DNA from: Clostridiales bacterium | GTDB taxonomy: Bacteria; Bacillota; Clostridia; Christensenellales; Aristaeellaceae | Direction: 5' to 3' | Assembly (NCBI GenBank): GCA_017569285.1 | Contig: CP069419.1 | Location: 1,116,001 to 1,180,000, forward strand | DNA length: 64,000 nt | Notes under the pieces: model-generated | Told to the model about the DNA's origin: nothing | Seen by the model: the letters and a program-made list of their open reading frames with translations, nothing else | Database searches by the model: none | Shown here: one piece after another, positions 49,862 to 55,395 of the stretch | Layout of the letters: the number at the start of each line of letters is the position of its first letter | Position numbering within the stretch: the stretch's first letter is position 1 | Made by a program: the position numbers and the translations under genes

Positions 49862-52414
49862 ATGAAACAGTATCAGGTCACCGGCATGAGCTGCGCCGCA
49901 TGCAGCGCCCGGGTGGAAAAGGCCGTCAGCGCCGTGCCGGGCGTCACCGCATGCTCGGTCAGTCTGCTCACCAATTCCATGGGCGTGGAAGGCTCCGCCG
50001 CCCCGGCGGAAATCATCCGTGCCGTGGAGGAAGCCGGCTATGGTGCCAGCGAAAAAGGTTCTGCCGCGGCCGCGCCTTCCGCCGCCGCGGCGGAGGAAGC
50101 CCTCCGGGATACGGAAACGCCCCGCCTCCGGCGCCGGCTGTTCGCCTCCCTCGGCTTCCTGCTCGTGCTCATGTATTTCTCCATGGGCGTGCACATGGCC
50201 GGTTTCCCGGCGCCGGCTTTCCTGGCCGGCAACCATGTGGCCCTCGCCCTCCTGCAGATGATCCTCAGTGCTGTTGTGCTCGTCATCAACCAGAAGTTCT
50301 TTATCTCCGGCTGGAAAGGGCTCATCCACCGCGCGCCCAATATGGATACGCTGGTGGCCATGGGCTCCGGCGTGTCCTTTGCCTGGAGTGTCTTCATGCT
50401 CTTCCGCATGGTGGACGCGCATCACCACGGGGACATGCCCGCCGTCATGGACGGGATGAACCAGCTGTATTTTGAGTCTGCCGCCATGATCCTCACGCTG
50501 ATCACCGTCGGCAAGATGCTGGAAGCCCGCAGCAAGGGCCGCACTACCGACGCGCTGAAGAGCCTCATGAAGCTCGCGCCGCAGACGGCCGTCCTCCTGC
50601 GGGACGGGACGGAGATTACCGTCCCCATCGCTGAGGTACATACCGGCGATGTGTTTGTGGTCCGGCCCGGGGAGAATATCCCGGTCGATGGAACTGTGCT
50701 TTCCGGCAGCGGCTCCGTGGATGAATCCGCCCTCACCGGGGAGAGCATCCCGGTGGACAAGACGGAAGGCGATACCGTTTCCGCGGCAACCGTCAACCGC
50801 TCCGGCTTCCTCACCTGCCGCGCCTCCCGCGTCGGTGAGGATACCACCCTCAGCCAGATCATCCGCATGGTATCCGATGCGGCCGCTACCAAGGCGCCCA
50901 TCGCGAAGATCGCGGACCGCGTCAGCGGCGTGTTCGTCCCGGTGGTCCTGGCCATTGCGGCAGTGACGACCGTTGTCTGGCTGGTCGCCGGGCAGACCGT
51001 GGCCTATGCGCTGGCCCGCGGAATCTCCGTCCTGGTTATCTCCTGCCCCTGCGCCCTGGGCCTGGCCACGCCGGTGGCCATCATGGTCGGCAACGGACTG
51101 GGGGCGAAAAACGGCATCCTGTTCAAAACCGCCGTCTCCCTGGAGGAGGCCGGCAAGGCGCAGATCATCGCGCTGGATAAAACCGGTACGGTCACCGAAG
51201 GCCTGCCGAAGGTCACCGATGTCCTGCCCGCAGGCGGAATCACGGAAAACGAGCTGCTCACCGCAGCGCTCGCGCTGGAAAGCAAGTCCGAGCATCCGCT
51301 CGCCCGCGCGGTCGTCGCGTACGCGGAAGCCAGAGGGCTTTCCGCCCCGGAAACGGAAAACTTCACTGCCCTGCCCGGCAACGGCCTGCAGGCGGAGCTG
51401 TCCGGTGCCCGGCTCATCGGCGGCAGCCGCAGATACATCGGCGGCCTGGTCCGCCTGCCGGAGGATGCCGTGCAGGCTGCAGACCGGCTCTCCGGCGAGG
51501 GAAAGACGCCCCTCTTCTTTGTCCGGGATGACTGCCTGCTCGGGATGATTGCCGTGGCGGATACCCTCCGGGAGGACAGCCGGGAAGCCATCGCGGCGCT
51601 GAAGAATATGGGCATGAAGGTCGTCATGCTCACCGGCGACAACCTGCGCACCGCGCAGGCCATCGGAAAGGCGGCCGGGGTGGATGAGGTCATCGCCGGC
51701 GTCCTGCCGGATGAGAAGGAAGGCGTCATCCGCCGCCTGCAGGCGCTCGGCAAAACGATCATGGTCGGTGACGGAATCAACGATGCCCCGGCCCTCACCC
51801 GGGCGGATACCGGCATCGCTGTCGGCGCAGGTACGGATGTTGCGATCGACGCGGCGGACGTGGTGGTCATGAAGAGCCGCCTGTCCGATGTCGCGGCCGC
51901 CGTCCGGCTCAGCCGCGCCACCCTGCGGAACATCCGGGAGAACCTGTTCTGGGCGTTTTTCTACAATGTCATCGGCATTCCGCTTGCGGCCGGCGTATGG
52001 ATTCCCGTTTTCGGCTGGGAGCTGAATCCCATGTTCGGTGCCGCGGCGATGAGCCTTTCCAGCTTCTGTGTCGTCACCAACGCACTGCGCCTGAATCTCT
52101 TCAGGCTGCATGATTCTGGCAAAGACCGGGCACTCACGCCGGTCGCGGAGGAAGACTTCCGCGCGGCGGTTGAAAATATCCAGTCCGAATTATTGAAGGA
52201 GGAACAGACTATGACGAAAACCATCGGAATCAAGGGAATGATGTGCATGCACTGTGAAGCACGCATGAAGAAGGCGCTCGAGGCGGTGGACGGCGTTGTC
52301 AGCGCCGCGCCGGACCATGAGAAGAACCAGGCCGTCCTGGAGCTCTCCAAAGACGTGCCGGAAGCCGTGCTCCGCAAGACCGTGGAAGACGCCGGCTACG
52401 AATTCGTCGGCTGA
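49862..52414 (+). CDS. copA: Cu(I)-exporting P1B-type ATPase with fused C-terminal CopZ-like domain
   Basis: 850 residues, longer than usual. N-terminal HMA domain with [11 protein letters not shown] (residues 8-18). Membrane CPC motif in [18 protein letters not shown] actuator loop, phosphorylated Asp439 in [18 protein letters not shown] and GDGINDAPA hinge are all present, so the pump is complete by about residue 750. From residue 784 follows a second HMA domain, [19 protein letters not shown], with an M-x-C-x-x-C-type Cu site (MCMHCE). It detoxifies copper across the cytoplasmic membrane. Start 16 bases after csoR with GGAGG. A good internal ribosome-binding site precedes the second HMA domain. 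Confidence 0.95.
52196..52213 (+). promoter_or_regulatory. Internal ribosome-binding site and start for a free CopZ-like protein
   Basis: AAGGAGGA (52196-52203) and an in-frame ATG (52211-52213) with a seven-base gap lie inside copA, just at the border of the C-terminal HMA domain. Initiation here would give a separate 67-residue copper chaperone. Inferred from sequence only. Confidence 0.55.
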
Positions 52415-52446
52415 TTTTTCCGGTATGTGAAAAAGGAGGCAGCATC

Positions 52447-52472
52447 TGATATGTACCCTCTTTACTGGACAC
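52447..52472 (+). repeat. Left terminal inverted repeat of the IS3-family element
   Basis: Begins TGATATGTACCC and pairs with 53898-53923; mismatches at positions 13, 14 and 18. Confidence 0.9.
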
Positions 52473-52492
52473 CCAGTAAGGAGGGTATTTTT

Positions 52493-53878
52493 ATGCGTTA
52501 CAGTTATGAGTACAAGATGAAATGTATTGAGATGTACAGAGAAGGAAGGTGGCCTGAGACCCCTACAGGTATTAAAGAAGCGCGATACTTTCATAATATG
52601 ATCCTGCGATGGTTTCATGTAGTAGAAGCAAATGGGCCAGATATTCTCAAACCCCGGGAAACTAATAAGGATTGGACCCCAGAAGAGAGATATGAGCTGG
52701 TTGCAAAAGTCCTAGGTGGTTCATCAATCCAGTTTGTAGCTAATGAGGCGGGTATAAATAGCGGATTACTTACTTGCTGGGTTCGCAAATATAAGAACGA
52801 GGGGTATAATGGCCTTATAAACAAGAGAAAAGGTCGACCACCAAAGGAGCCCCATATGAAGAAAATCAATTACAACAACCCTAGGAAACTTAATGAGTCC
52901 GAGTATGAAGAACTCGTAAGGCTAAGGGCTGAAAACGAGTATATCAAAGCGGAAATCGAAGTCATAAAAAAAGAGATCGCCTTGAGAGAAGAAAAGGAAG
53001 CTGCGCGTCTCAAGGCGAAAAAGCAAACGATCATCAAAGAACTCAGAGAAGAAGGATACCAACTGAAGTATCTTCTTAAAGCGATGTGCCTTTCCAGATC
53101 AACGTACTATTACGAAGTTTCAAAAGAAGATGTGGTAGCCAAAAGGAGCGAAGCAGTCGCAAGTGTGATCAGGGAAATCTTTGAACATAATAAAGGTCGA
53201 TACGGTGTCCGGAGAGTACACCACGAACTGATCAACAGAGGCTATAAGGTAAACCACAAAAAGGTCCAGCGATTAATGCACTGCATGGACCTTAAAGGCA
53301 AACGCCCGAAAGAAAAATACCATTCTTATCAGGGAGAAGTTGGAAAGGTGGCAGATAACCTCATTAACCGAGACTTCAGTACAACAAAGCCTTTGCAAAA
53401 ATGGACAACAGATGTTTCTCAATTCAATTTATCTTGGGGAAAATGCTATCTTTCTCCAATTCTGGATATGCACACAAATGAGGTCATCTCATACGATCTC
53501 TCGTTAAGTCCAAACATGGAACAGATCCGACGGATGCTGGATAAGGGGCTGAGCAGGTTTTCCTCACTTAATGGTCTGATCTTTCATTCTGACCAGGGTT
53601 GGCAGTACCAACATGCTTATTTCAGAAATACGATTGAGAAACGTGGCATTATTCAGTCCATGTCCCGAAAAGGAAACTGTTATGACAACAGTATTATGGA
53701 GACATTCTTCGGACGACTAAAGAACGAGATGTTTTATGGATACGAGAAAGACTACAAATCATATGAGGAATTCTCCAAAGCTATGGCCAAGTATATTGAC
53801 TACTACAACAATGAGCGCATCCAGGCAAAAACAAAATGGATGCCACCCGTAAAATACAGGTTGGCATCCATGGGTTGA
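52493..53878 (+). CDS. IS3-family transposase, OrfA and OrfB in one frame
   Basis: 461 residues. The N-terminal 120 residues are a helix-turn-helix DNA-binding part (VANEAGINSGLLTCWVRKYK), followed by a coiled coil (about 145-185), the HTH_21 region (RYGVRRVHHELINRGY) and the rve DDE core: Asp in KWTTDVSQF, Asp in FHSDQGWQYQ and Glu in NSIMETFFGRLKNE. Usual relatives join OrfA and OrfB by frameshift at an A6G site; here a seven-A run plus G (52966-52973) is present but reading is continuous. The ATG at 52493 follows AAGGAGGG; the frame is open to 52427, partly outside the element. Confidence 0.93.
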   Translation: MRYSYEYKMKCIEMYREGRWPETPTGIKEARYFHNMILRWFHVVEANGPDILKPRETNKDWTPEERYELVAKVLGGSSIQFVANEAGINSGLLTCWVRKYKNEGYNGLINKRKGRPPKEPHMKKINYNNPRKLNESEYEELVRLRAENEYIKAEIEVIKKEIALREEKEAARLKAKKQTIIKELREEGYQLKYLLKAMCLSRSTYYYEVSKEDVVAKRSEAVASVIREIFEHNKGRYGVRRVHHELINRGYKVNHKKVQRLMHCMDLKGKRPKEKYHSYQGEVGKVADNLINRDFSTTKPLQKWTTDVSQFNLSWGKCYLSPILDMHTNEVISYDLSLSPNMEQIRRMLDKGLSRFSSLNGLIFHSDQGWQYQHAYFRNTIEKRGIIQSMSRKGNCYDNSIMETFFGRLKNEMFYGYEKDYKSYEEFSKAMAKYIDYYNNERIQAKTKWMPPVKYRLASMG

Positions 53879-53897
53879 GCCTCGAGCATAAATCAAT

Positions 53898-53923
53898 GTG
53901 TCCAGGAAACTGGGTACATATCA
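53898..53923 (-). repeat. Right terminal inverted repeat of the IS3-family element
   Basis: Ends in CATATCA; inverted copy of the left end with three mismatches. The ATC duplication follows. Confidence 0.9.
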
Positions 53924-53943
53924 ATCCGCTGCCTCCTTTTGTG

Positions 53944-55395
53944 TTATCCGCGTTTTTTCTTCCGGCCGGTTTTCGGTTTTTCCTCCGGTGCGTCTCCGGA
54001 GGAGGGTTCCGCCGGAAGCACAATCTCGAAGGTCGTTCCCGTGCCCACCTTGGAACGGACGCGCAGTTTGCCGCTGTGCGCCACCACGATGATCCGCGCG
54101 ATGGACAGGCCCAGTCCGTGGCCGCCCGTTTCCGAGTTGCGCGCGGCGTCCGCGCGGTAGAAGCGCTCGAAAATCTTCGGCAGGTCTTCCTCGGAGATGC
54201 CGGCGCCGTGGTCCGTCACGGTCAGGATGCACCCGTTCCCGTTCGGCCGGGTGCCGAGCGTCACGGTGCTGTCCACCGGGGAATACTTCACGGCGTTGTC
54301 CACCAGGATCCGCATCACCTGCTTGATCATGCCCCGGTCCGCGTGGATCAGGCTGCTTTCGCAGGGATTCACCTCAAACCGGTGGTCGCCGGAGACCATG
54401 CCGGCTTCCTGGCACACTTCCTTCACGACGTCCGCCGGGTCAAACTCGCTGATCTCCAGCAGCAGCGTCTTCTTGTCATGCCGGGCCAGGAACAGCAGGT
54501 TTTCCACCAGCTCGCGCATGGCCACGGTTTCCTGGGAAATCGCACCGATGCCCTCGTCCAGCACCTCGGGATCCTCTTTGCCCCAGCGCCGCAGCATATC
54601 CGTATACCCCTGGATCACCGCGATCGGGGTCCGCAGCTCGTGGGACGCGTCGGAAACAAACTGTTTCTGGCTGTTGTAGCTCTGCTCAATCCGGTCCAGC
54701 ATGGAGTTGATAACCATGGCCAGGTCCTGCAGTTCATATTTCATTCCCGCGACGTTGATCCGGTTGGACAGGTTCGCCGCCGACAGGGTTTTCGTAATCT
54801 CCGTCATTTCGCGGATCGGGGAAAGCACCTTCTTGTCCAGCACCTTACGCCTCCGCAGGAAGGACATCATCCGCAGCAGGTCCGCCAGGACAATCCCGGC
54901 GATCATCACCGCCCAGATGAACAGGCTTTCCCGCAGGTCCAGGGACAGCCGGATAATATGCCCTTCCGTTCCGTTGTCCAGCATGAATACCGGGCGCCAC
55001 GGCGCCCCGCCGGATGTCAGCACGGTAAAGAATTCCTTCACCTGGTCGCCAAAGTTATCCGGCGCTGTCCGTTCCACCATCACGGCGTCCGCGCGGGCAT
55101 CCTGCAGGATCAGCTGACTGTACCGCCCGTCCTCCAGGTCCGGCGCTTCCGTGGCCACCCGCCGCGCCAGCGAAATGGCGCCCGGAACATTGCCGGCCGC
55201 CAGGGCCAGCGTCATGATCACCGCCGCCAGCAGGAATGTGCGTGCCAGCCGCCCGCAGTAATGCCCGGCAATCCGCAGCGACAGGGAAAGCCGGATCCGG
55301 GAGCTGATGCGTCCCAGTCCGGCATGCACGGTCTCTGCCGCCTGGTTATAAGTACGGGCTTCCCGCACGCTTTGTACCTGTTTCTTTTCACTCAT
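53944..55395 (-). CDS. Sensor histidine kinase (OmpR-type partner)
   Basis: 483 residues. Membrane segments around 52-70 and 157-175 flank an outside sensor domain of about 85 residues. HAMP domain near 180-235, phosphorylated His252 in SDASHELRTP, and an HATPase domain with N-box MRILVDNAVKYSP, G1 DHGAGI and G2 GGHGLGLSI. The end is basic and Pro/Lys rich. Its start overlaps the regulator stop by eight bases. Ligand unknown. Its terminator has been split by the IS element, so read-through into the IS is likely. Confidence 0.95.
   Translation of the reverse strand: MSEKKQVQSVREARTYNQAAETVHAGLGRISSRIRLSLSLRIAGHYCGRLARTFLLAAVIMTLALAAGNVPGAISLARRVATEAPDLEDGRYSQLILQDARADAVMVERTAPDNFGDQVKEFFTVLTSGGAPWRPVFMLDNGTEGHIIRLSLDLRESLFIWAVMIAGIVLADLLRMMSFLRRRKVLDKKVLSPIREMTEITKTLSAANLSNRINVAGMKYELQDLAMVINSMLDRIEQSYNSQKQFVSDASHELRTPIAVIQGYTDMLRRWGKEDPEVLDEGIGAISQETVAMRELVENLLFLARHDKKTLLLEISEFDPADVVKEVCQEAGMVSGDHRFEVNPCESSLIHADRGMIKQVMRILVDNAVKYSPVDSTVTLGTRPNGNGCILTVTDHGAGISEEDLPKIFERFYRADAARNSETGGHGLGLSIARIIVVAHSGKLRVRSKVGTGTTFEIVLPAEPSSGDAPEEKPKTGRKKKRG

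What the first reader, a model, noticed from the sequence alone, without database searches (positions are those of the whole stretch)
52430..53940. Insertion sequence placed exactly in the loop of a bidirectional terminator
The IS3-family element is bounded by a 3-bp duplication (ATC) and sits precisely in the four-base loop of a perfect 13-bp stem whose arms are now 1.5 kb apart (AAAAGGAGGCAGC at 52431 and GCTGCCTCCTTTT at 53928). The stem closes the gap between convergent copA and a histidine kinase gene. Insertion in a terminator loop harms no gene and may change read-through of both neighbours. Known elements of other groups prefer hairpins; I do not know of this preference being described for this element.
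Basis: seen in the sequence. Interest (0 to 1): 0.72.

Follow-up and report, generated by a model that had tools for sequence, protein, structure and literature searches.

The report
Jumping gene targeting terminator hairpin loops
A common kind of bacterial jumping gene tends to insert itself into the loop of the hairpin that ends transcription, apparently recognising the hairpin's shape rather than its sequence, which lets it land beside genes without breaking them.

Summary
A 1477-bp IS3-family element (52447-53923) with an ATC duplication splits a perfect 13-bp stem in its ATCC loop, between convergent copA and a histidine-kinase gene. A close relative has the empty site with the hairpin intact.

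It is not a one-off. Of 55 insertions with a target duplication from relatives at 60-100% identity, 34 sit centrally in a strict hairpin, against 0.75% of flank positions and 2.2% of positions just past stop codons. A second, more distant sample from the IS150 subgroup gives 17 of 26. The stems share no sequence; 31 of 34 have A and T tracts on both sides; 0 of 46 intergenic sites are divergent (background 30 of 102).

Nearly the same enzyme uses a REP-like palindrome in one genome (6 of 6) and unrelated terminators in this one, so structure is probably read.

Precedents: IS1397, ISKpn1, ISPsy8 (IS3 family, REP palindromes) and IS1272 (structure-directed, stem-loop replacing). My searches of open papers found no report of terminator-loop targeting across the IS150 subgroup. 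The preference is not absolute: 21 of 55 sites fail the strict test, and one of six copies here is no clear hairpin. Effects on transcription and the physical mechanism are untested.

The parts
52431..52443 (.). left arm of the target terminator hairpin (AAAAGGAGGCAGC)
   Evidence: intact hairpin in relative G015
52444..52446 (.). target site duplication ATC, left copy; part of the ATCC loop
52447..53923 (+). IS3-family element, IS150 subgroup, 1477 bp
   Evidence: ends and by six genome copies; NF033516 E 1.1e-100; tree
52447..52472 (+). left terminal inverted repeat
52453..52488 (+). 16-pair terminator-like hairpin at the IS left end followed by TTTTATG; it encloses the likely Shine-Dalgarno (52477-52486) of orfA
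   Evidence: pair changes on both sides across 48 distinct left ends
52493..53878 (+). transposase; here orfA and orfB are fused by a 1-bp insertion (IS position 579), 461 aa; L002-L005 keep a long separate orfB overlapping orfA near an A6/A7 run
53836..53871 (-). hairpin in the 3' end of orfB, on the minus strand followed by a T-rich stretch; possible inward-facing terminator
   Evidence: inside coding sequence, not listed by the terminator scan
53898..53923 (-). right terminal inverted repeat
53924..53926 (.). target site duplication ATC, right copy
53928..53940 (.). right arm of the target terminator hairpin (GCTGCCTCCTTTT)
49862..52414 (+).
53944..55395 (-).

Best explanation
This is an IS3-family element of the IS150 subgroup whose transposition machinery selects targets by structure: it strand-transfers into the loop of DNA hairpins or cruciforms, most often those of intrinsic (often bidirectional) terminators, and of REP-like palindromes where a genome has them. 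Shown from sequence: the excess of hairpins, the central position, the lack of shared sequence, the A/T-tract flanks, the gene context, two empty sites, and occurrence in both sampled clades of the subgroup. Inferred: that the transposase reads an extruded structure, joining the two IS ends 3 bp apart across the loop so that about the loop is duplicated; that the benefit to the element is landing just past stop codons without breaking genes; and that its own left-end hairpin with T tract (perhaps also the right-end one) blocks incoming transcripts and partly replaces the split terminator.
For: Own genome: 4 of 6 copies pass the strict stem score, 5 of 6 by folding. Clade I: 34 of 55 TSD sites score 7 or more (29 of 50 without the five G023 sites), against 0.745% of 41,492 flank positions and 1.76% of 5,747 non-ORF positions, and 2.2% of 11,898 positions 5-80 nt past stop codons. 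Clade II: 17 of 26 TSD sites score 8 or more against 0.55% of 26,417 positions. Inner 8-nt arms differ at 5.81 of 8 positions on average; 31 of 34 have A and T tracts on both sides, against 43 of 289 background hairpins. Gene context of 46 intergenic TSD sites: 25 convergent, 14 and 7 co-directional, 0 divergent, against 12/60/30 of 102 background pairs (Fisher p 4e-6 for divergent). G023, with orfB 95.7% identical over 300 residues: 6 of 6 full copies in one palindrome family of which I count 18 members; G000 has the exact arm motif only twice, never as a palindrome, and its targets are unrelated stems. Intact hairpins at two empty sites in G015, one with a compensatory stem change. Tree: both clades and E. 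coli IS150 form one 100/98 group. The left-end hairpin covaries.
Against: 21 of 55 TSD sites fail the strict score; some are long-loop or off-axis hairpins (L066, L068, L096), others are not hairpins (L058, L110, L006). 7 of the 55 fall inside an ORF by a simple ORF caller. Sites without TSD pass less often (4 of 20 in clade I; 1 of 6 in clade II), and one of their 13 classified intergenic contexts is divergent. Thresholds were set after seeing the data. Most targets are both hairpin and terminator, so structure and transcription cannot be fully separated. IS150 in E. coli lies beside hok genes with only weak long-loop pairing. The clade II plasmid and phage loci were picked by hand from listed hits. 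No transposition was observed. The non-hairpin control IS (group A) has no TSD, so it is a weak control.
Confidence: 0.8

Rival explanations
1. Survivorship: insertion is random, and only copies in harmless places past gene ends, rich in terminators, survive.
For: 0 of 46 intergenic TSD sites are divergent and 25 of 46 are convergent, as selection against promoter and gene damage would give.
Against: Even 5-80 nt past stop codons only 2.2% of positions are centred in such a hairpin, against 34 of 55 sites. Survival alone would not place insertions at the loop to within a few bases.
Confidence: 0.05
2. Sequence-specific recognition of a repeat family (REP type), as described for IS1397 and ISKpn1; the hairpin is incidental.
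For: In G023 6 of 6 full copies lie in the GGACACYGGGGAC palindrome. Published IS3-family cases are REP-specific (PMC1525189, passages).
Against: Stems of clade I share no sequence (5.81 of 8 mismatches, 32 different inner arms of 34). G000 has no exact copy of that palindrome, yet its near-identical element uses unrelated stems.
Confidence: 0.06
3. The target is read through transcription: the nascent RNA hairpin or the paused RNA polymerase at a terminator attracts the transposase, not a DNA cruciform.
For: 31 of 34 strict targets have terminator-like tracts; background hairpins of similar strength have them less often (27 of 29 against 20 of 43 at score 10 or more).
Against: No significant IS orientation bias at co-directional sites (14 against 7, p 0.19), though the sample is small. 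Many sites are bidirectional. A/T flanks also favour cruciform extrusion (recalled). A cruciform is the substrate in the model of PMC5678879 (passages).
Confidence: 0.25

Closest known systems
IS1397 / ISKpn1 / ISPsy8 (IS3 family, REP-targeting)
   Same: IS3 family; ISPsy8 gives a 3-bp repeat and inserts at the symmetry axis of a probable hairpin (PMC1525189, passages)
   Different: Described as specific for REP sequences. Here one enzyme type uses many unrelated stems, mostly terminator-like, and a REP-like repeat in one genome that has it. IS1397 itself was not compared by sequence.
IS1272 (IS1182 family), stem-loop replacing transposition
   Same: Targets inverted repeats of unrelated sequence, read as structure (PMC5678879, passages)
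   Different: IS1272 removes the stem-loop and leaves no TSD. Here both arms stay and about the loop is duplicated, which resembles the hypothetical pathway c of that paper's Fig. 13 legend.
Bacterial class C group II introns
   Same: Insert at Rho-independent terminators, which that paper views as self-limitation (PMC3522654, passages)
   Different: Retroelements that insert downstream of the terminator; here a DNA transposon inserts inside the loop.
IS150 of E. coli
   Same: Same 100/98 clade by orfB tree; TG..CA ends
   Different: The nine loci fetched (eight with ends read) lie beside hok genes, at a few related sites, with weak long-loop pairing.
IS1447 subgroup (IS3 family, Firmicutes)
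   Same: Firmicutes IS3 elements with an A run between the ORFs (PMC6211511)
   Different: Its ends begin with TA and its recoding is +1 slippage (abstract and passages); ours begin with TG. The passages read do not mention terminators as targets.

Membership tests
IS3 family | DDE rve-type transposase of the IS3 model | tested here: met
   NF033516 337.5 bits against cut-off 160; PF00665, PF13276, PF13333
IS3 family | TG..CA inverted repeats and short duplication of 3 (3-4) bp | tested here: met
   of 75 sites 49 with 3 bp, 6 with 4 bp, 20 with none of 3 bp or more
IS3 family | orfA/orfB overlap with -1 frameshift | tested here: inconclusive
   Overlapping frames near an A6/A7 run in L002-L005; the window copy is fused by a 1-bp insertion; frameshifting itself not measured
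IS150 subgroup | Groups with IS150 apart from other IS3 subgroups | tested here: met
   100/98 branch holding both clades and K-12 IS150; some outgroup rows have very long branches, which the tool flags as unsafe
REP-specific IS (IS1397 type) | Insertion into one repeated palindromic sequence family | tested here: not met
   G000: unrelated stems; met only in G023
Stem-loop-replacing IS (IS1272 type) | Stem-loop removed, no TSD | tested here: not met
   both arms and the TSD are kept in the window copy and L003, with empty sites in G015
Terminator-targeting element (works like) | Target is a functional intrinsic terminator | tested here: inconclusive
   A/T tracts, position past stop codons, no divergent context among 46; termination not assayed

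The most novel reading that the evidence does not exclude
Hairpin-loop targeting is an ancestral, sequence-independent property of the whole IS150 subgroup across phyla; REP targeting by IS1397-like elements is one special case of it; the transposase attacks both loops of a cruciform, duplicating about the loop, and the element carries inward-facing terminators of its own that replace the one it splits.
Probability: 0.4. Interest if true: 0.78.

Novelty: new variant of a known kind. Interest (0 to 1): 0.64.

Why it matters
As far as I recall, target choice of most IS3-family elements is described as weak, with REP-specific exceptions. A structure-only rule that puts elements into terminator loops would explain how these elements multiply without breaking genes. 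It would fit the reported excess of IS3-family copies (among those of nine other families) between convergent genes (PMC9208149, passages), join REP targeting and terminator targeting under one mechanism, and make cruciform or hairpin recognition by a DDE transposase directly testable. It also means that such insertions repeatedly alter the ends of transcripts.

Tried and rejected
A first pairing test based on summed RNA base-pair probabilities was too permissive: 47 of 55 TSD sites reached a sum of 10, but so did 22% of null positions. I used the strict stem score instead. The score (loop 3-8, one mismatch) and that (loop to 12, two mismatches) differ; thresholds 7 and 8 were chosen after seeing the data, and other thresholds are in those outputs.

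Fixed-register pairing around the TSD showed only a modest excess (for example 0.389 against 0.320 expected), because the axis varies by about 2 bases.

A strand or transcription polarity was looked for and not found (14 against 7). TSD length against loop length: too few 4-bp cases to say anything.

Controls: group A (IR TGGACTGTATCC; 10 copies in G069; 19 rows because nine were scored in both orientations) gave 0 hairpins, but has no TSD. Group C has duplications of about 20 bp or more and was not scored. Group B, intended as a control, turned out to lie in hairpins and was moved to clade II (three of its four pass the score, L239 does not).

IS1221A: ends not found. Three plasmid relatives at 65-69% identity (L248-L250) were not counted; L250 looks like a terminator hairpin, L248 and L249 do not clearly. 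Eight distant viral loci (L139-L146) and the partial contig-end copies were not counted. Of 84 loci tried for clade I, 22 were dropped for missing ends or short flanks (listed). Of the 25 rows outside the own genome, two duplicates and seven with unclear ends or contig edges were dropped.

Flanks of L002 and L005 found no match in six relatives; empty sites of L004 and L006 were not sought. No structure prediction was run. IS1397 was not found or compared.

Full report
What was checked. The sequence shows a 1477-bp element (52447-53923) flanked by ATC and by two perfectly complementary 13-nt arms. Taking out the IS and one ATC gives AAAAGGAGGCAGC-ATCC-GCTGCCTCCTTTT. A near relative, G015 (97% over the end of copA), has the uninterrupted site with loop GTCC. 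A second empty site in the same relative, matching copy L003 (88%), keeps the hairpin with a compensatory stem change (ATC/GAT to ACC/GGT). These two hairpins therefore predate the IS. In the window only four stems of 13 bp or more were found, one of them the IS's own.

Identity. The transposase hits the IS3-family model NF033516 at 337.5 bits, with rve, HTH_21 and rve_2 domains. An orfB tree places it in a clade with E. coli IS150, apart from the other IS3 elements included (100/98; some outgroup branches are very long). In the own genome there are six copies, 99-100% identical. The window copy is a single ORF because of one inserted base at IS position 579. L002-L005 keep a separate orfB of 314-315 codons overlapping orfA near an A6/A7 run; L006 is decayed by several indels.

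Targets in the genus. Five of the six own copies fold as hairpins split at or near the loop: L001, L002, L003, L004 (bulged, fails the strict score) and L005. L006 does not; it abuts another IS3-type element. G023 holds six full copies (90-92% DNA identity; orfB 95.7% over 300 residues), all in the palindrome GGACACYGGGGAC...GTCCCCRGTGTCC. From the list I count 12 intact palindromes of this family in G023 and 6 split by the IS, some in tandem, BIME-like. G000 has the exact arm motif twice and no such palindrome. Nearly the same enzyme thus uses a REP-like repeat in one species and unrelated terminators in another.

Targets across clade I. The search for related loci kept the best 80 of 543 confirmed loci, 60-83% identical, and viral contigs gave 12, of which the four nearest were used. 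Of these 84, 22 were dropped for missing ends or short flanks, which left 62; with 13 genus copies that makes 75 sites, 55 with a TSD (49 of 3 bp, 6 of 4 bp). A strict score (ungapped stem, one mismatch, loop 3-8, axis within 3 bases of the TSD centre) is 7 or more in 34 of 55, against 0.745% of 41,492 flank positions and 1.76% of 5,747 positions outside ORFs. Positions 5-80 nt past stop codons give 2.2% of 11,898 (binomial p about 4e-42). Sites without TSD give 4 of 20. Five of the 34 are G023 palindromes.

What the targets share. Not sequence: the inner eight bases of the arms differ at 5.81 of 8 positions on average, and 32 of 34 are different. They share tracts: A-rich before and T-rich after in 31 of 34, against 43 of 289 background hairpins. 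Of the 55 TSD sites, 46 have both neighbours called by a simple ORF caller: 25 convergent, 14 and 7 co-directional, none divergent; 7 fall inside an ORF and 2 lie at an edge. Background pairs are 12, 60 and 30 of 102 (p 4e-6 for divergent, 2e-7 for convergent). Of the 20 sites without TSD, 13 were classified, one of them divergent. These are the marks of intrinsic, often bidirectional terminators. IS orientation at co-directional sites is not significantly biased (14 against 7).

Depth of the trait. A second, more distant sample (clade II) has three sources: 12 loci picked by hand from plasmid, phage and E. coli hits (plasmid and phage hits 38-51% identical to the window's protein), 16 of 25 rows found in 398 genomes of the phylum with a Streptococcus equinus relative (46-87% identical to that relative), and four copies in G069. 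It has 32 sites, 26 with a TSD, of which 17 score 8 or more (loops to 12, two mismatches) against 0.55% of 26,417 positions; without TSD 1 of 6. Examples lie in Streptococcus equi, Fusobacterium polymorphum, Acinetobacter, Brevibacillus, Pantoea and Enterococcus phage Q69. A different IS3 element in G069, group A, gives 0 of 10, but has no TSD. IS150 of E. coli itself lies beside hok genes in the nine loci fetched (eight with ends read), which are a few related sites rather than nine independent ones, with weak long-loop pairing.

The element's own hairpins. The left end folds into a 16-pair hairpin followed by a T tract just before the orfA start, enclosing the likely Shine-Dalgarno; the scan that lists it finds 4 terminator-like sites in the stretch where shuffles give 2.7. 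Over 48 distinct left ends the pairs change together, for example T-A 27 against C-G 18 at position 13, and five pair types at position 18. The stem has a median of 18 pairs but as few as 5 in one end, and the T count after the longest stem is low (median 2 of 8) because the outermost pairs use up part of the tract. On the minus strand near the right end a hairpin of median 13 pairs (8 at least) precedes a T-rich stretch (median 7 of 12) in 54 distinct ends. It lies in coding sequence, so protein constraint may explain it, and the terminator scan did not list it. I infer that these hairpins block incoming transcripts and may replace the split terminator.

Mechanism. Most likely an extruded cruciform, or hairpin in one strand, is attacked across the loop with a 3-bp stagger, so that the loop is about duplicated. 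PMC5678879 drew this as a hypothetical pathway for structure-dependent transposition, while IS1272 itself removes the stem-loop (passages). A transcription-linked route is the main rival. Survivorship and repeat-specific recognition fit poorly.

Prior knowledge. IS3-family elements IS1397, ISKpn1 and ISPsy8 insert in REP palindromes, ISPsy8 at the symmetry axis with a 3-bp repeat (PMC1525189, passages). Class C group II introns insert downstream of terminators (PMC3522654, passages). A large survey reports that IS3-family copies, with nine other families, are over-represented between convergent genes (PMC9208149); none of its nine passages on terminators treats them as targets. My ten searches of the open-licence PMC library, of which I saw listings capped at 20-25 papers each, showed no report of terminator-loop targeting in the IS150 subgroup. 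Subscription papers, preprints and TnPedia or ISfinder notes were not searchable, so it may be known there.

Noticed in passing
G023:C1, G001, G036: A REP-like palindrome family GGACACYGGGGAC...GTCCCCRGTGTCC, sometimes in tandem pairs about 42 bp apart, frequent in three of the four genus members searched and absent as an exact palindrome from the window's genome; its own mobiliser is unknown.
   Followed up: partly
window 53025 (IS position 579): One inserted base fuses orfA and orfB of the window copy into a single 461-aa transposase frame; L002, L004 and L005 lack it and keep the two-frame layout.
   Followed up: partly
L246, L294-L301: IS150 of E. coli lies beside hok/mok genes on chromosomes and plasmids alike in the nine loci fetched, suggesting a hok-locus preference.
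   Followed up: partly
L240-L244 (G069): Five copies of another element (ends TGTAGG..CCTACA, weak match to the IS3 model) with direct duplications of roughly 20 bp or more.
   Followed up: no
L226, L227, L229, L231-L235 (G069): A third IS3-type element (group A, 10 copies) has no TSD and often lies next to recurring flanking sequences, including hairpins such as AAGGCGGTGTTGCAGATT; perhaps another repeat-linked target.
   Followed up: no
L063, L071, L074: Clade I elements whose left end is replaced by sequence resembling the end of another IS3 element, suggesting insertion into or recombination at the left-end hairpin.
   Followed up: no
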